Source: Firmicutes bacterium UBA6132 (GTDB lineage: Bacteria; Bacillota_A; Clostridia; Tissierellales; Sedimentibacteraceae). Taken from it: DNA of 13,601 bases. Within the stretch, counting starts at the first letter, position 1; the number at the start of each line of letters is the position of its first letter. The translations under genes and the position numbers were made by a program. Below are positions 3,971 to 13,601 of the stretch, piece after piece. Below the pieces are notes generated by a model. It did no database searches. It was not told the origin of the DNA and saw nothing but the letters and a program-made list of their open reading frames with translations. The DNA is taken from the NCBI GenBank assembly GCA_002435835.1, contig DIVM01000018.1:1-13601 (forward strand). Direction: 5' to 3'.

Positions 3971-5779
3971 ATGAAGATAGTGGCTGGTGTAGATATTGGC
4001 AATGCAACAACTGAAGTTGCTTTGGCTAAAATAGATGATAAAGGTGTTACGTTTCTGTCAAGTGGAATAGTTTCTACAACTGGTATAAAAGGTACTCAAC
4101 AAAACATAAACGGAGTATTTAAATCTCTTACTGAAGCTTTGAATAAAGCAAATTTGAATATTGACGATTTATGTGAAGTTAGAATCAACGAAGCTGCACC
4201 AGTTATAGGTGATGTTGCAATGGAAACTATTACTGAAACAATAATAACTGAATCAACTATGATAGGACATAATCCATCTACTCCGGGAGGAATTGGAATT
4301 GGTGTTGGAGAATCAATAAATATTGAAAATCTGCAAAGCGCCGAAGAAAATAAAGACTATATAGTAGTAATTCCATCCCATATAAGTTTTGAGTCTGCAG
4401 CAAAAAATATTAATTTATTTCAAAATAGGATAAATATAACGGGTGCTATAATTCAGAATGATGACGGTGTGCTCATCAACAACAGATTGGCTAAAAAAAT
4501 ACCTATTGTTGATGAGGTAGAGTTAATAGATAAGGTTCCTATTGGAATGCTTTCAGCTATTGAAGTGGCACAAGTAGGCGGTGTTGTTGAAGTATTATCA
4601 AATCCATATGGGATAGCTACACTATTTAAGTTAAATTCTGATGAAACTATACAGGTTGTACCTATAGCAAGGGCTTTAATAGGAAACCGCTCAGCTGTTG
4701 TTATTAAAACTCCCAAAGGCGATGTTAAGGAAAGAAGAATACCTGCAGGAATTTTAGAAGTTATAAATTCTAAAAAAAAAGTTTCTGTTAATATTGATGA
4801 AGGTGCAGAAAAAATAATGTCTGCTGTAAATTCAGTACTTGAAGTAGATGATATAAAAGGTGAGCCTGGAACTAATGCAGGAGGAATGCTTGAAAAGGTA
4901 AGGCAAGTTATGTCAAATCTTACAAGTCAGCATCCTAAATCAATTAAAATACAGGATTTATTGGCAGTAGATACCTTTGTTCCTCAAAAAGTGAGAGGTG
5001 GACTTGCTAATGAATTTTCATTAGAAAATGCTGTAGGAATTGCTGCAATGGTTAAAGCCGATAAGCTTCAGATGGAAATCATAGGTAAACAACTTGCAGA
5101 AAAAATCGGAATAAAGACAATAATAGGTGGCGTTGAAGCAGATATGGCAATAAGAGGAGCTTTGACAACACCTGGTACAAGTAAACCGCTGGCTATTCTT
5201 GATATGGGAGCGGGTTCTACAGATGCATCTATAATAAATAAAGATGGAGAAATAAAATCCATACATTTAGCTGGAGCAGGAAACATGGTTACCATGCTCA
5301 TTATGTCAGAAATGGGGCTTGATTCTTTTGAAATGGCAGAAGATGTAAAAAGATACCCATTAGCAAAGGTAGAAAGCTTATTCCACATAAGACATGAAGA
5401 TGGTACTGCAGAGTTTTTTGAAACTCAATTAGATCCTAAATTATTTGCAAAGATTGTTCTCATAAAAGAAGACGGTATGGTTTCTGTAGGAAGCAATATG
5501 CCGTTGGAAAAAATTAAAAATATAAGACAATCTTCAAAAGAAAAAGTATTTGTAACAAATGCATTAAGAGCATTAAGCAAAGTAAGCCCTACTAACAGTA
5601 TAAGGGATATACAATTTGTAGTTTTAGTAGGAGGGTCAGCACTTGATTTTGAAGTTCCTCAATTAGTTACTAATGCATTGTCCCATTATAATGTTGTGGC
5701 AGGCAGAGGAAATATAAGAGGAACTGAAGGACCAAGAAATGCAGTGGCTTCGGGTCTTGTATTATCAACGGGATATTGA
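3971..5779 (+). CDS. pduG: PduG, large subunit of diol dehydratase reactivase
   Basis: ATP-dependent, chaperone-like reactivating factor. Known family members exchange damaged cobalamin for intact adenosylcobalamin on the inactivated dehydratase. The 602-residue product is full length (Salmonella about 610). Actin/Hsp70-fold nucleotide motifs are visible: phosphate-1 loop GVDIGNATTEVALA (residues 6-19), phosphate-2 loop AILDMGAGSTDAS (408-420) and adenosine motif VVLVGGSALDF (550-560). The conserved ITESTMIGHNPSTPGG stretch (92-107) and the GLANEFSLENAVGIAAMV region (344-361) fit the DdrA/PduG family. ATG 3971 has TGGAGG a few bases upstream. The stop codon overlaps the pduH ribosome site, suggesting translational coupling to its partner. 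A run of 9 A at 4772-4780 stays in frame. Confidence 0.96.
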   Translation: MKIVAGVDIGNATTEVALAKIDDKGVTFLSSGIVSTTGIKGTQQNINGVFKSLTEALNKANLNIDDLCEVRINEAAPVIGDVAMETITETIITESTMIGHNPSTPGGIGIGVGESINIENLQSAEENKDYIVVIPSHISFESAAKNINLFQNRINITGAIIQNDDGVLINNRLAKKIPIVDEVELIDKVPIGMLSAIEVAQVGGVVEVLSNPYGIATLFKLNSDETIQVVPIARALIGNRSAVVIKTPKGDVKERRIPAGILEVINSKKKVSVNIDEGAEKIMSAVNSVLEVDDIKGEPGTNAGGMLEKVRQVMSNLTSQHPKSIKIQDLLAVDTFVPQKVRGGLANEFSLENAVGIAAMVKADKLQMEIIGKQLAEKIGIKTIIGGVEADMAIRGALTTPGTSKPLAILDMGAGSTDASIINKDGEIKSIHLAGAGNMVTMLIMSEMGLDSFEMAEDVKRYPLAKVESLFHIRHEDGTAEFFETQLDPKLFAKIVLIKEDGMVSVGSNMPLEKIKNIRQSSKEKVFVTNALRALSKVSPTNSIRDIQFVVLVGGSALDFEVPQLVTNALSHYNVVAGRGNIRGTEGPRNAVASGLVLSTGY

Positions 5780-5785
5780 AGGTGA
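5778..5785 (+). promoter_or_regulatory. Ribosome binding site of pduH overlapping the pduG stop
   Basis: GAAGGTGA overlaps the TGA stop of pduG (5777-5779) and lies 5 bases before ATG 5791. It supports ATG 5791 over the in-frame TTG at 5776 and GTG at 5782. Confidence 0.75.
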
Positions 5786-5790
5786 ATTAT

Positions 5791-6153
5791 ATGATTTTAC
5801 AACAAGATATTAACAGCAAACCATCAATTAAGATTTATCATTGTAAACAGGTGAATGAATTTAGTTTTAAAGCTTTACTTTATGGTATTGAGGAAGAAGG
5901 CATTCCTTATGAGCTGATATCCTGTGAAAATTCTGATGCAATAAGCTTAAGTTATGAAGCTTGCACCAGTTCTAAACTTGGAGTAGGATTTGGAATCAGT
6001 AATAGTGAAATAGCTCTGCACTTTGAAAAATTGGATAAATTATCACCATTATTTAAAATAAACTTTAAAAGTAAAATCTCTTCAATCCGGTCTTTAGGAA
6101 CCAATGGGGCAAGACTTGTAAAAAAAATGCCCTTTAAAGAAATACAGATATAG
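5791..6153 (+). CDS. pduH: PduH, small subunit of diol dehydratase reactivase
   Basis: Small partner of PduG in the dehydratase-reactivating complex. From ATG 5791 the product is 120 residues (Salmonella PduH about 116). The segment LLYGIEEEGIPYELI (about residues 30-44) closely resembles the matching part of PduD ([12 protein letters not shown]), and both continue into a SKLGVGFGIS or SGIGIGIQ type strand and a KLDKLSPLF or [11 protein letters not shown] type segment. This agrees with the known structural relation between the reactivase small subunit and the dehydratase medium subunit, which underlies subunit swapping during reactivation. A TTG at 5776 overlapping the end of pduG is in frame but lies upstream of the ribosome site and is rejected. 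Confidence 0.92.
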   Translation: MILQQDINSKPSIKIYHCKQVNEFSFKALLYGIEEEGIPYELISCENSDAISLSYEACTSSKLGVGFGISNSEIALHFEKLDKLSPLFKINFKSKISSIRSLGTNGARLVKKMPFKEIQI

Positions 6154-6175
6154 AATTCTATAAGGAGGTGTTAAT

Positions 6176-6655
6176 ATGTCTGAGTTGAGCCTTGGAATTA
6201 TAGAAATTGTAGGTCTTGCCGCAGCAATAGAAGCTGCAGATATATGTTTGAAAACAGCAAATGTTTCATTAGTAGGTTATGAACTTACTAAAGGTGATGG
6301 CATGGCTGTAATTAAAATAGAAGGCAATGTGGGTGCCGTTAAGGCAGCAATAGAAGCAGCTAAAATTTCTGCAATGAAAGTAAATAAGGTAGTAAGCTTT
6401 AAAATTATACCAAGACCAAGTGAACAAATCAAATTATTAATAAGAAATAATGATACTGTGGGATATGAAAATAAAATTGAATGTATTGACGATCTTGAAG
6501 AAAGTAAATCTTTAGAATCAATAGAAGATACTTGTGTAATTAAAACTGATAAAGAAACAGTAATAGAAGATAAAATAATATTATTAGAAGAATCAAAAAT
6601 TGATACTGCTTCGGTTTTCTTAAAGAATGTAGCGGATGAAAAAAAAAAACTATAA
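6176..6655 (+). CDS. pduK: PduK, BMC shell protein with C-terminal extension; ends early at a poly-A tract
   Basis: Minor shell protein with one BMC domain (residues about 4-85: LGIIEIVGLAAAIEAAD, LVGYELTKGDGMAVIKIEGN, IIPRPSEQI) followed by an acidic, probably disordered extension. The start at ATG 6176 has a near-perfect AAGGAGGTG at 6162-6170. As read, the frame ends at TAA 6653-6655, giving 159 residues ending in DEKKKL. The stop comes right after 11 consecutive A (6639-6649). Reading one base back (-1) continues without a stop for about 33 codons to 6745-6747 and encodes the Cys motif TCNICKDPNCKRKKGEL, which is the kind of C-terminal motif I recall from PduK proteins. The full-length product would be 190 residues. 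The pore loop (ELTKGDGM) differs from the KIGSG loop of PduA/PduJ. Either the gene is slippage-dependent or phase-variable, or one base is missing from the sequence. Identity as PduK is firm; the true C-terminus is uncertain. Confidence 0.88.
   Translation: MSELSLGIIEIVGLAAAIEAADICLKTANVSLVGYELTKGDGMAVIKIEGNVGAVKAAIEAAKISAMKVNKVVSFKIIPRPSEQIKLLIRNNDTVGYENKIECIDDLEESKSLESIEDTCVIKTDKETVIEDKIILLEESKIDTASVFLKNVADEKKKL
6639..6649 (+). repeat. Run of 11 A at the pduK frame break; A-AAA-AAA slippery heptamer
   Basis: Eleven consecutive A, the longest homopolymer I noticed in the window. In the pduK zero frame the last seven (6643-6649) read A-AAA-AAA, a canonical -1 slippery heptamer. A tract of this length is also a known type of site for transcriptional slippage and for replication slippage. 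Adding one A (or removing two) joins pduK to the downstream Cys-rich frame. A weak 6-bp stem with 3-base loop (TTGCAA-TAT-TTGCAA, 6666-6680) lies 16 bases downstream; its distance and weakness argue against it being a strong stimulator. Confidence 0.75.
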
Positions 6656-6747
6656 TTACAATTACTTGCAATATTTGCAAAGATCCTAATTGCAAAAGAA
6701 AAAAAGGCGAGTTAAGGAAAAATTGTATGAATTATAAAAATAAATAA
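6649..6747 (+). other. Out-of-frame Cys-rich C-terminal segment of pduK
   Basis: In the frame one base back from pduK, codons from 6649 read T-I-T-I-T and then CNICKDPNCKRKKGELRKNC, ending at TAA 6745-6747. The CxxCxxxxC...C arrangement (Cys codons at 6667, 6676, 6691, 6724) resembles a small zinc or iron-sulfur binding motif, and the phrase CNICKDPxCxRKKGE matches what I remember of PduK C-termini in other bacteria. There is no start codon or ribosome site that would make it a separate gene; it is reached only from pduK. The segment fills what would otherwise be a 109-base gap and ends 17 bases before pduJ, a normal spacing for this operon. This supports it being real coding sequence. Confidence 0.82.
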
Positions 6748-6764
6748 TTATGGAGGAATAAAAA

Positions 6765-7049
6765 ATGGGTGAAGCTTTAGGTTTAATAGAAACAAAAGGA
6801 TTGGTAGGAGCTATCGAAGCTGCTGATGCAATGACAAAATCAGCTAATGTGACATTAGTTGGTTATGAAAAAATAGGTTCAGGATTAGTAACTGTAATGG
6901 TAAGAGGGGATGTTGGAGCTGTTAAAGCATCAGTGGATGCAGGAGCAGCTGCGGCTGAAAAAGTGGGACAGTTAATTTCAAAACATATAATTCCAAGACC
7001 TCATACTGATGTTGAAAAAATACTGCCTAAAGTAGCAAGTGCAGAATAA
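6765..7049 (+). CDS. pduJ: PduJ, hexameric BMC-domain shell protein (PduA paralogue)
   Basis: Abundant hexagonal shell protein of 94 residues. It shares with PduA of this window the [25 protein letters not shown] and [14 protein letters not shown] segments, including the pore loop KIGSG. It differs mainly in the second helix ([17 protein letters not shown]) and a short tail (VASAE). ATG 6765 has GGAGGA at 6752-6757, 7 bases upstream. In Salmonella PduA and PduJ are near-duplicates, PduA being transport-competent and PduJ more structural, so this copy is assigned PduJ by position next to pduK and pduL. The K-J order is the one I associate with Gram-positive pdu loci, reversed from Salmonella. 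Confidence 0.94.
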
Positions 7050-8544: not shown

Positions 8545-9357
8545 ATGGTTAATAAAAATGACATCAAAAAATCAATTGAAGAAGCTATAGTAAAATATAT
8601 AGCTGAAAAGGTAATTGAAAAAATTAATGAATTAAATAAAACTGCGTTAGTGCTTTTTACAGGTTCAACAATTGGATTTAATCAATCCATTAAGTCTTTG
8701 AGAATTTTAAGAAGCAATGGTTGGAAGTTCAGGTTTGTAATGTCTAAAGGTGCTGAAATAGCATTGAGCAAGGGGCTGTTGAAAGACATGTTGTCAGTAG
8801 ATGATGTTATAACTGAAGATTCTTTAGTAGATATAAATAGTTTGATAAAAAACAATAATTTTATCATAATTCCAAGTCTTACAATTAATACTGCAGCTAA
8901 AATAGCTAATTGCATATGTGATAATTTAGTTACAAATATTATTAGTGATTCTATGGCAGAAGGAAAGACTGTAATAGCTTCAATTAACGGATGTTGTCCG
9001 GATAATGAAGAGAGAAACAATAAAGGTTTTAATGTTAATGAAGCATATAAAGAAAAATTAAGAAACAATATGATGGCTCTAAGAAGCTATGGAATAAAGT
9101 TGACTACTTCAGAAAATTTGGCAGAAAAAGTTAATAATTCTTTTTCTTATAAATACTCTAAACCAAATTTAAAGTCAGATAAGGTTTTAGCTGATGATGT
9201 TCATAAAGAAATTTGGTTAAAAGATAAAATAATAAGTAGGGGCTGTATTATAGATAATAATAGTTTTTCAATTATTAAAATTGATAAAAATGCTGTTATT
9301 ACCGATTTAGCTAAAGAAGAAGCAGCCAGATTAAATATCAAATTAATAAAGGAATAA
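8545..9357 (+). CDS. pduM: PduM-like microcompartment protein with flavoprotein-type core
   Basis: A 270-residue protein at the position of pduM between eutJ and pduN. It begins with a long amphipathic helix (about residues 4-28) that could target it to the compartment. The core (33-150) has a Rossmann-like start ([14 protein letters not shown]) and the segment [20 protein letters not shown], which looks like the NTxAKIAxGxxDNL motif of the FMN-binding flavoprotein family. The C-terminal [18 protein letters not shown] resembles the end of Salmonella PduM (a 163-residue structural protein) and other microcompartment proteins. Cysteines cluster at 123, 125, 150 and 151. Function is unknown; a structural or redox role is possible. 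ATG 8545 has GAGGTG immediately upstream, overlapping the eutJ stop region. The pduM label is by position and tail similarity; the flavin link is inference from the motif. Confidence 0.65.
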
Positions 9358-12071: not shown

Positions 12072-13400
12072 ATGGAAAAAAATCTTGTTGACCTAATAAA
12101 AAGTGCAGGAATATTAGGGGCCGGAGGTGCAGGATTTCCAACGCATATAAAAGTTAATAGTAAGGCTCAGTATGTTATTATTAATGGGGCTGAATGCGAA
12201 CCTCTTCTAAGAGTGGACCAACAACTTTTGTCTTCTAAATCAAAAGAGCTGCTACAAAGTTTAAAACTTGTAATGAAGCAAACAGGTGCTGAACATGGAT
12301 ATATCGCCTTAAAAGGCAAATATAAAGATGCAATAGAAAATATTAACAAGTATATAAATGATTATGAAAATATTAGTTTATTTAAATTGGATAATTTTTA
12401 TCCTGCAGGTGATGAACAGGTAATTGTTTATGAAGTTACAAAAAGAATTGTGCCTGAAGGTGGTATACCATTAAATGTGGGAGTGATAGTTTTAAACGTT
12501 GAAACAGCTCTTAATATTTATGAGGCATACTTTAATGAAACAAATGTAACTGAGAAATATATCACCGTTACAGGTGAAGTAAAAAATGCAGTTACAGTTA
12601 AAGTACCCATTGGCATTACTGTAAAAGAGGTAATAGATTTAGCAGGAGGTCCTACTGTTGACAAATATGTTGTTATAAATGGAGGACCTATGATGGGTAA
12701 AATCATAGAACAAGACAAGCCAGTGACTAAAACTACAAAAGGGCTTATTGTACTTTCTGTTGACCATCCTCTTATAACTGATTTAACTAAGGATATTTCT
12801 CAAATGCTTAAGGAAGCAAGAACTTCCTGCATGCATTGTAGTTTATGTACAGAAGTGTGTCCAAGAAATTTAATTGGACATAGAATAGAACCAAATAAAC
12901 TCATAAGAATGGAAAGCTATGCCGGTGTTAATGCTGACTCAGAGTTTCCCAAAACAGCATTTTTATGCTGTGAATGTAGACTGTGTCAATATGCATGTGT
13001 TATGAATTTAAAACCTTGGAAAGTTAATAGCCTATTAAAAGTTAATATGAGTAAAAATGGTATAAAAAATAATCTACAAAATACACCTGATAAAGTTCAT
13101 CCTTTCAGAGAATATAAAAAATATCCTGTAAAAAGGCTGATTTCAAAATTAGGTTTGTACAAATATGACATTGAAGCTCCATTAACTGAAGTAAAACAAC
13201 AATTCAATAAAGTATCAATTTCTTTAAAGCAACATATTGGTGCTCCTGCTGAAGCAGTAGTTAAAGTAGGAGATAAAGTCAAAAAAGGAAATTTAATTGC
13301 AGACATGCTTGACGGAAAAATGGGATGCAGAGTGCATGCAAGTATTTCAGGTATAGTTACAGAAACAAATAAAGATACTATAATAATTGAAGGAGTATAA
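12072..13400 (+). CDS. pduS: PduS, RnfC-like iron-sulfur flavoprotein cobalamin reductase
   Basis: Reduces cobalamin so that PduO can adenosylate it; known PduS carries FMN and two [4Fe-4S] clusters. The product is 442 residues, close to family length. The N-terminal RnfC/NuoF-like domain shows GAGGAGFPTHIK (residues 16-27), the INGAECEPLL segment (37-46) and PAGDEQVIVY (111-120). Two ferredoxin-type Cys motifs follow: CMHCSLCTEVCP (Cys253, 256, 259, 263) and CCECRLCQYAC (Cys299 or 300, 302, 305, 309). A C-terminal barrel-sandwich domain (about 375-442, HIGAPAEAVVKVGDKVKKG) closes the protein. ATG 12072 has GAGGTGAT upstream, 12 bases after pduP. pduT, the usual neighbour and interaction partner of pduS in Salmonella, is not seen next to it here. 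Confidence 0.95.
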   Translation: MEKNLVDLIKSAGILGAGGAGFPTHIKVNSKAQYVIINGAECEPLLRVDQQLLSSKSKELLQSLKLVMKQTGAEHGYIALKGKYKDAIENINKYINDYENISLFKLDNFYPAGDEQVIVYEVTKRIVPEGGIPLNVGVIVLNVETALNIYEAYFNETNVTEKYITVTGEVKNAVTVKVPIGITVKEVIDLAGGPTVDKYVVINGGPMMGKIIEQDKPVTKTTKGLIVLSVDHPLITDLTKDISQMLKEARTSCMHCSLCTEVCPRNLIGHRIEPNKLIRMESYAGVNADSEFPKTAFLCCECRLCQYACVMNLKPWKVNSLLKVNMSKNGIKNNLQNTPDKVHPFREYKKYPVKRLISKLGLYKYDIEAPLTEVKQQFNKVSISLKQHIGAPAEAVVKVGDKVKKGNLIADMLDGKMGCRVHASISGIVTETNKDTIIIEGV

Positions 13401-13403
13401 ATT

Positions 13404-13601
13404 ATGAGTACATTAAGTTTAGTAGCAGCATTTGGCGGAGGATTATTTGGAGCATCCATAGGAGCATTGCCGGTATTTATATTAACAGGTTTAATTGCAA
13501 TAGCAGGCGGTGTTGCAACATTGGCAGGAGCAGCGGATTTATCTGTTGGTAGCATAGCATTTGGTTCTATATTGGGACCACATATAGCTTTTGGTCCTGC
13601 T
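13404..13601 (+). CDS. Hydrophobic membrane protein of unknown function (3' partial)
   Basis: The reading frame from ATG 13404 stays open to the window edge (66 codons). GGAG at the very end of pduS is the likely ribosome site and only 3 bases separate the genes, so it is probably translated together with pduS. The visible sequence is almost entirely hydrophobic and rich in Gly and Ala (for example FGGGLFGASIGALPVFILTG and AIAGGVATLAGAADL), indicating at least two membrane segments with small-residue packing, then a GSIAFGSILGPHIAFGPA stretch. It has no signal-peptide cleavage pattern and no BMC domain. I do not recognise a named family with confidence. Position in the operon suggests a transporter or membrane component tied to diol or cobalamin metabolism, or an electron-transfer partner of PduS; this is inference only. 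Confidence 0.75.
   Translation, partial: MSTLSLVAAFGGGLFGASIGALPVFILTGLIAIAGGVATLAGAADLSVGSIAFGSILGPHIAFGPA

What the first reader, a model, noticed from the sequence alone, without database searches (positions are those of the whole stretch)
6600..6764. pduK breaks at an A11 tract, with its Cys-rich tail intact in the -1 frame
The pduK frame stops at 6653-6655 directly after 11 consecutive A, but the -1 frame continues without a stop to 6745-6747 and encodes CNICKDPNCKRKKGELRKNC, a CxxCxxxxC motif typical of PduK C-termini as I recall them. The -1 heptamer A-AAA-AAA is in the correct register. Transcript slippage adding one A would also restore the fusion. If real, the operon makes two PduK forms, 159 and 190 residues, differing by a metal-binding-like tail. 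This would let the cell tune or phase-vary a shell property. The simple alternative is a homopolymer error in the assembly.
Basis: partly seen in the sequence, partly recalled or inferred. Interest (0 to 1): 0.72.

Follow-up and report, generated by a model that had tools for sequence, protein, structure and literature searches.

The report
Slippery A-tract splits microcompartment gene pduK
A gene for a minor shell protein of a bacterial micro-organelle is interrupted at a run of eleven A's, just before a conserved four-cysteine tail, and it most likely makes two protein lengths because the copying enzyme slips there; this is a known trick in a new kind of gene, not yet shown by experiment.

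Summary
The pduK frame (6176-6655, 159 aa) stops 3 nt after 11 A's (6639-6649). The -1 frame is open only from inside the run (6640) to 6747 and encodes the family's four-cysteine tail. The tail is real: 111 of the 120 listed relatives carry CxxCxxxxC. In 55 of 59 named loci tail and shell domain share a frame; 2 are cut by a contig end and 2 are broken. Assembly error is unlikely: the nearest held genome (G001, 4.3% diverged here) has the same A11 and break. G001 has one A/T run of 11 or more in 3.1 Mb, this one, against 86-131 expected. The 98-nt tail has no substitution between the two, while intergenic sites differ by 6.4%.

Best reading: RNA polymerase slips at the A11, giving mostly tail-less and some tailed PduK, as Citrobacter rodentium tssM1 (also A11) does at 20-25% (PMC4256274). 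There are no RNA or protein data; recent tail loss and phase variation stay open. New member of a known kind. A lead: A>=9 runs are about 26-fold denser in PduK linkers than in neighbouring ORFs.

The parts
6176..6655 (+). pduK 0 frame, 159 aa, ends 3 nt after the A run
   Evidence: BMC domain PF00936 E 6.7e-23
6188..6418 (+). BMC shell domain of PduK (residues 5-81), complete in the short form
   Evidence: Pfam BMC positions 1-75 of 75
6639..6649 (+). A11 tract, proposed slippage site; the A AAA AAA heptamer at 6643-6649 is in register for a -1 shift
   Evidence: the same 11 A in G001 C392:113-123
6640..6652 (+). only stretch where the 0 frame and the -1 frame are both open
   Evidence: TGA at 6637-6639 in the -1 frame, TAA at 6653-6655 in the 0 frame
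6640..6747 (+). -1 frame with the four-cysteine PduK tail, stop TAA 6745-6747, no ATG/GTG/TTG before the last Cys
6667..6726 (+). Cys motif C-x2-C-x4-C-x10-C (Cys codons start at 6667, 6676, 6691, 6724)
   Evidence: codon list; family pattern
6752..6756 (+). GGAGG, likely ribosome-binding site of pduJ, just after the tail frame
   Evidence: read from sequence
6765..7049 (+). pduJ-like BMC-H shell gene, next in the operon

Best explanation
The A11 tract is a slippage site that lets one gene make two PduK forms. RNA polymerase adds or drops A's while copying the tract. Transcripts that keep 11 A's give the 159-aa protein: shell domain plus linker, no tail. Transcripts shifted into the -1 frame give the 190-aa protein with the four-cysteine tail. 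A third class ends about a dozen residues past the run. Ribosomes sliding on the AAA codons may add to the tailed form. By analogy with tssM1, the tailed form would be a minority of about a fifth to a quarter. The likely effect is to dilute a tail that in Salmonella belongs to a minor shell protein which positions the microcompartment. Shown: the sequence anatomy, the tail family, and the same state in two genomes. Inferred: slippage, the ratio, and the effect.
For: Both frames are open together only in the tract and the 3 nt after it. The tail keeps all four Cys and nearly every conserved residue. G001 has the same A11 and break at 4.3% DNA divergence. The tail shows 0 of 98 substitutions, against 37 of 579 at intergenic sites; only 27 of 3521 windows of 98 consecutive third positions are free of change. 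G001 has one run of A or T >= 11 in 3.1 Mb (87% complete), with 86-131 expected from base composition, so long runs are removed elsewhere but kept here. With the tail uncounted the gap to pduJ would be 109 nt, where the other gaps are at most 28 nt. C. rodentium tssM1 has an A11 upstream of a premature stop and makes both forms by transcriptional slippage, 20-25%, cDNA with 10-15 A's (PMC4256274; outline with abstract, part 1 of the Results and the slippage section read). T. thermophilus dnaX does it on A9, and genomes commonly avoid A/T runs from about nine up (PMC1088944, passages). Restoration by slippage is reported as detectable above 7 A's or T's in a row (PMC6260861, passage).
Against: No RNA or protein data. 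Only two genomes, and they are related. The 112 nt upstream of the tract are also unusually alike (0 of 37 third positions changed), and 11.3% of all 98-nt windows are unchanged, so the quiet patch may reflect recent exchange instead of selection on the tail. The tail has N where 96% of the family has H and scores below all but 4 of 130 tails, which would fit early decay. One study reports that the E. coli host polymerase slips with a strong bias to T runs over A runs (PMC6260861, passage). Slippage depends on the organism, and some AT-rich genomes show no sign of avoiding such runs (PMC1088944). Salmonella lacking pduK grows like wild type (PMC9132943, passages), so selection on the tail may be weak.
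Confidence: 0.6

Rival explanations
1. The frame break is a recent loss mutation. The shell domain alone is enough in this lineage, and the tail is a relic not yet eroded. Some slipped transcripts may occur but have no role.
For: Conserved His replaced by Asn, tail score among the lowest 5 of 131. Tail-less PduK-like proteins exist, e.g. P0093, and P0002, which joins a tail-less PduK domain to a PduJ domain. pduK is dispensable for growth in Salmonella (PMC9132943, passages).
Against: No substitution and no stop in 98 nt between two genomes whose intergenic sites differ by 6.4%. The run length is unchanged across that divergence although long runs are expected to be mutable (general knowledge).
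Confidence: 0.22
2. Phase variation in DNA: the tract changes length between cells, switching tailed PduK on and off; the assemblies show one phase.
For: A11 is long enough to be mutable. Elsewhere P0037 (2 contigs, unnamed) and P0039 (275 contigs, Peptostreptococcaceae) are identical for 200 residues up to a Lys run and then part, P0037 losing the tail, as if by one base (inferred from proteins, no DNA seen; sequencing error possible).
Against: Both genomes have 11. No joined-frame protein of this lineage is among the 120 best of 295 hits in 5.8 billion proteins; the 159-aa cluster has 3 members on 2 contigs. The sample is tiny.
Confidence: 0.09
3. Programmed -1 ribosomal frameshifting on A AAA AAA makes the tailed form, as in csoS2 or dnaX.
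For: Heptamer in register at 6643-6649. A microcompartment precedent exists in csoS2 (PMC5009743, passage).
Against: No Shine-Dalgarno-like element seen upstream by eye. The downstream RNA fold is weak: -14.8 kcal/mol over 115 nt, z -1.98, 9 of 200 shuffles as good; it is not nothing, so this is not excluded. An uninterrupted A11 is by itself enough for RNA polymerase slippage in tssM1 (PMC4256274).
Confidence: 0.06
4. Assembly or read error; the gene is plain and intact.
For: Homopolymers are the usual error site. Raw reads could not be seen.
Against: A second assembly with 510 substitutions over 11,836 aligned bases shows the same 11. The 11 other A or T runs of 7 or more in the aligned part show no length change; the alignment has a gap position only at 13398 and at the end.
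Confidence: 0.03

Closest known systems
Citrobacter rodentium tssM1 (transcriptional slippage at A11; PMC4256274)
   Same: Run of exactly 11 A's ahead of a premature stop; conserved C-terminal domain continues in the frame reached by one extra A; no stimulator needed.
   Different: Type VI secretion gene, run 28 nt upstream of the stop; slippage and both proteins shown by experiment. Here the stop follows after 3 nt and nothing is shown.
Thermus thermophilus dnaX (A9 slippage; PMC1088944 passage)
   Same: Two C-terminal length forms from one gene by slippage in an A run.
   Different: There the DNA encodes the long form and slippage makes the short one; here the reverse.
Blochmannia/Buchnera poly(A) frameshifts rescued by slippage (PMC3017870 passages; Tamas 2008 and Wernegreen 2010 seen only as references)
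   Same: Frameshifts in A tracts kept over time with the gene not eroding.
   Different: AT-biased endosymbiont genomes with over a hundred long poly-A tracts in genes; G001 has 3.1 Mb and a single A11.
alpha-carboxysome csoS2 (-1 ribosomal frameshifting; PMC5009743 passages)
   Same: A microcompartment protein made in two C-terminal forms by recoding.
   Different: Ribosomal mechanism with a 3' stem loop, 50% efficiency.
Salmonella PduK (PMC9132943, PMC3836489 passages)
   Same: PduA-like shell domain, C-terminal extension, four Cys in the last 30 aa suggested to bind an iron-sulphur cluster.
   Different: Single unbroken frame (e.g. the Salmonella subspecies loci L082, L085).

Membership tests
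PduK (BMC-H shell protein with Cys tail) | complete BMC domain | tested here: met
   PF00936 1-75 of 75, E 6.7e-23
PduK (BMC-H shell protein with Cys tail) | C-terminal four-cysteine tail | tested here: met
   present in the -1 frame, 51.6 bits against the tail HMM, family median 63.0
PduK (BMC-H shell protein with Cys tail) | tail in the same frame as the shell domain | tested here: not met
   0 frame stops at 6653-6655
PduK (BMC-H shell protein with Cys tail) | lies in a pdu-type operon beside a pduJ-like gene | tested here: met
   diol dehydratase large subunit, BMC gene downstream, PduL-, EutJ-, CcmL/EutN- and PduO-type genes around it
genes using transcriptional slippage | A or T run of about 9 or more where frames overlap | tested here: met
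   A11, frames overlap only at 6640-6652
genes using transcriptional slippage | shifted frame encodes a conserved domain of the same family | tested here: met
genes using transcriptional slippage | run and break kept in relatives | tested here: inconclusive
   same in G001, but only two related genomes carry it
genes using transcriptional slippage | mRNA with mixed A counts and both proteins | not testable with these tools
   no RNA or protein data
programmed -1 ribosomal frameshifting | slippery heptamer in register | tested here: met
   A AAA AAA at 6643-6649
programmed -1 ribosomal frameshifting | stimulatory upstream SD or stable downstream structure | tested here: inconclusive
   none strong: fold z -1.98; upstream checked by eye only
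phase-variable (contingency) gene | run length varies within the lineage | tested here: inconclusive
   11 in both genomes; no joined-frame protein of the lineage among the 120 listed; n is 2 genomes, 3 cluster members

The most novel reading that the evidence does not exclude
PduK in AT-rich Clostridia and Tissierellia is commonly made as a mix of tailed and tail-less subunits, set by slippage at A runs in its Lys-rich linker. In some species the DNA encodes the long form and slippage makes the short one; in this lineage it is the reverse. The mix would set how many tails each compartment shows, and so its positioning.
Probability: 0.15. Interest if true: 0.72.

Novelty: new member of a known kind. 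Interest (0 to 1): 0.5.

Why it matters
If true, this is a metabolic microcompartment shell protein whose tail dose is set by polymerase slippage, parallel to csoS2 in carboxysomes but by another route. It gives a natural separation of the PduK shell domain from its tail of unknown function, so the tail's role in positioning or metal binding becomes testable. It also warns annotators not to call such pduK genes dead without a test.

Tried and rejected
Assembly error was set low on the second genome. An independent start for the tail is unlikely: no ATG, GTG or TTG in the -1 frame before the last Cys, though rare starts such as ATT and ATA occur. A family-wide programmed site was not found: 55 of 59 named loci are in one frame (53 by a regular expression, L071 and L085 by reading), 2 are cut by a contig end, and 2 (L052, L063) are broken, with no A run of 7 or more near the break; L052 has a C5 and an A6 inside the tail. 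The A11 by itself is not improbable for this base composition, so its rarity rests on the G001 count. More strains were sought in the genus and family of G001: 1 of 25 and 1 of 27 genomes had the tail pattern, both times G001. A control on where A>=11 runs lie in the genus was uninformative: 20 of 30 fetched loci (duplicates included) overlap no stop-to-stop ORF of 100 aa or more, but the cut pduK locus of G001 is itself among the 20. Literature: 'microcompartment + transcriptional slippage' gave 1 paper, the review with the csoS2 passage; 'PduK + frameshift' gave 1 paper, seen as a listing only, on a Listeria phage. The main text of the GeneTack survey (PMC3711429) has no hit for microcompartment, carboxysome, propanediol or ethanolamine (its supplements were not seen). 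PDB chains match an intact orthologue (P0016) only up to residue 108 of 208, and no Pfam model reaches its cut-off on the tails of the three intact orthologues scanned.

Flaws of my own: the pattern was off by one and demanded AAG or AGG at one lysine codon, so its 59 loci under-sample AT-rich genes and it would not match the window itself. The control ORFs are stop-to-stop ORFs near pduK with fewer Lys clusters than a linker (KKK: 7 in 15.7 kb of linker, 25 in 410.6 kb of control), so most of the 26-fold excess may come from Lys clustering. One search dropped duplicates and the chance hit L166, leaving 72 loci. The expected run counts use the composition of the window or of 17.5 kb of G001, not of the whole genome.

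Full report
WHAT IS THERE. The window is a pdu-type operon: diol dehydratase large subunit, PduL-type phosphotransacylase, EutJ-like, a CcmL/EutN-type vertex protein, PduO-type adenosyltransferase and an RnfC-like protein, with BMC shell genes between. pduK is 6176-6655. Its 159 aa hold a complete BMC domain at residues 5-81 and a linker, and end 3 nt after an 11-A run at 6639-6649. In the -1 frame a TGA sits at 6637-6639 and the frame is then open to TAA 6745-6747. So both frames are open only at 6640-6652, and a shift can only happen there. If pduK ended at 6655 the gap to pduJ would be 109 nt; the 15 other junctions have at most 28 nt.

THE TAIL IS A PduK TAIL. Of the 120 best-scoring relatives listed (295 found) in 5.8 billion proteins, 111 carry C..C....C; the 9 without are the window's own protein, P0002, P0027, P0037, P0052, P0065, P0088, P0093 and P0101. 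Of 59 loci of named records found by a tail DNA pattern, tail and shell part share a frame in 55, 2 are cut by a contig end (L075, L080), and 2 are broken (L052, L063). Twelve further loci from 249 genomes of the same order (11 in one frame, 1 cut) and four from 391 of the same class (4 in one frame), G001 aside, add no broken case; several are the same genes as named loci, and one class hit (L166) is chance. An HMM from 130 unique tails, window excluded, gives the window's -1 piece 51.6 bits against a family median of 63.0; four tails score lower. All four Cys and the conserved N, D, P, R, K and G are kept; the one strong departure is N for a His that 96% keep. Published work notes the four Cys and suggests an iron-sulphur cluster (PMC3836489, passages), and proposes that the C-terminal extension faces outside the shell and controls positioning (PMC9132943, passages).

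NOT A SIMPLE ERROR. The window's own assembly is not held. The nearest genome, G001, is unnamed. It is placed in the same order as a genome (G223) whose pduK locus shares an identical 600-nt stretch with Thermohalobacter berrensis, of the order Tissierellales; the nearest named proteins are Sedimentibacter for PduK (P0016, 79% over 62%) and Tissierella for the gene at 8545-9357 (P0127, 56%). So the host is probably of that order. G001 contig C392 starts inside pduK and has the same 11 A's and the same break. Over 11,836 aligned bases (window 4762-6526 is not covered) the two differ at 510, so they are separate lineages.

IS THE TAIL STILL USED? Between window and G001 the 98 nt of tail show no substitution. 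Intergenic sites show 37 of 579, nearby third positions 17 of 311, and only 27 of 3521 windows of 98 consecutive third positions are unchanged. This speaks for constraint on the tail. Against it, the 37 third positions just upstream are also unchanged, so a recent exchange of this patch is possible, and 11.3% of all 98-nt windows are unchanged. G001 (3.1 Mb, 87% complete) has a single A/T run of 11 or more, this one; a first-order model predicts 86 (from its own pdu contigs) to 131 (from the window's composition). In the genus 22 of 25 genomes have at least one such run. A dinucleotide shuffle of the window alone gives an A11 about half the time, so the argument is about what genomes keep, not about composition.

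MECHANISM. Uninterrupted A runs of about nine or more make bacterial RNA polymerase slip in several organisms, and many genomes avoid them in genes (PMC1088944, passages). The closest case is C. rodentium tssM1: an A11, a premature stop, a conserved domain in the next frame, 20-25% long form, cDNA with 10-15 A's, no ribosomal stimulator found (PMC4256274). The pduK anatomy matches this closely. Here 11 A's give 159 aa; a net shift into the -1 frame gives 190 aa; the third frame ends at 6687-6689 after about a dozen residues. Against it, one study reports that the E. coli host polymerase favours T runs over A runs for slippage (PMC6260861, passage). Ribosomal -1 shifting could add, but I see no upstream stimulator and the downstream fold is weak. 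I put 0.6 on two forms made by slippage, 0.22 on recent loss of the tail, 0.09 on phase variation, 0.06 on ribosomal frameshifting as the main route and 0.03 on error.

A WIDER HINT. In 72 de-duplicated orthologue loci the linker holds 5 runs of A>=9 in 15,693 nt, against 5 in 410,571 nt of neighbouring ORFs (Fisher 1.5e-5). The five are in L001, L096, L105 (A10), L167 and L170, all intact genes; in 9 of the 10 shifted frames after them a stop comes within 16 codons, so slippage there would remove the tail. Much of the excess may follow from Lys clusters in the linker, and the loci are not all independent. P0037 against P0039 suggests a one-base change at a Lys run before the same tail in another family, at protein level only. 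This is the basis of the bolder reading.

KNOWN OR NEW. Slippage at A runs is known, and recoding of a microcompartment protein is known for csoS2 (PMC5009743, passages). I found no report for PduK in the searches made, in a library that lacks most subscription journals. It is a new member of a known kind, unproven.

Noticed in passing
P0002 (216 aa): A PduK-like shell domain without the Cys tail runs straight into a PduJ-like shell domain in one frame, a natural double-BMC fusion or an assembly effect.
   Followed up: no
P0037 against P0039: Two PduK proteins (P0039 from Peptostreptococcaceae) identical for 200 residues up to a Lys run, then one loses the Cys tail as if by one base; 2 contigs against 275.
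   Followed up: partly
L052 (Desulforamulus aquiferis) and L063 (Enterobacter sp. EA-1): pduK there is broken by more than one frame change, including one inside the tail; in L052 the tail's frame continues into the next BMC gene.
   Followed up: partly
   Followed up: partly
PduK C-terminal tail, all orthologues: The four-Cys tail is strongly conserved, yet no Pfam-A model reaches its cut-off on it (3 proteins scanned) and no PDB chain covers it (1 protein searched).
   Followed up: no
window 13404-13601: The operon continues past an RnfC-like gene into a Gly/Ala-rich, hydrophobic-looking protein with no Pfam match, cut by the window end.
   Followed up: no
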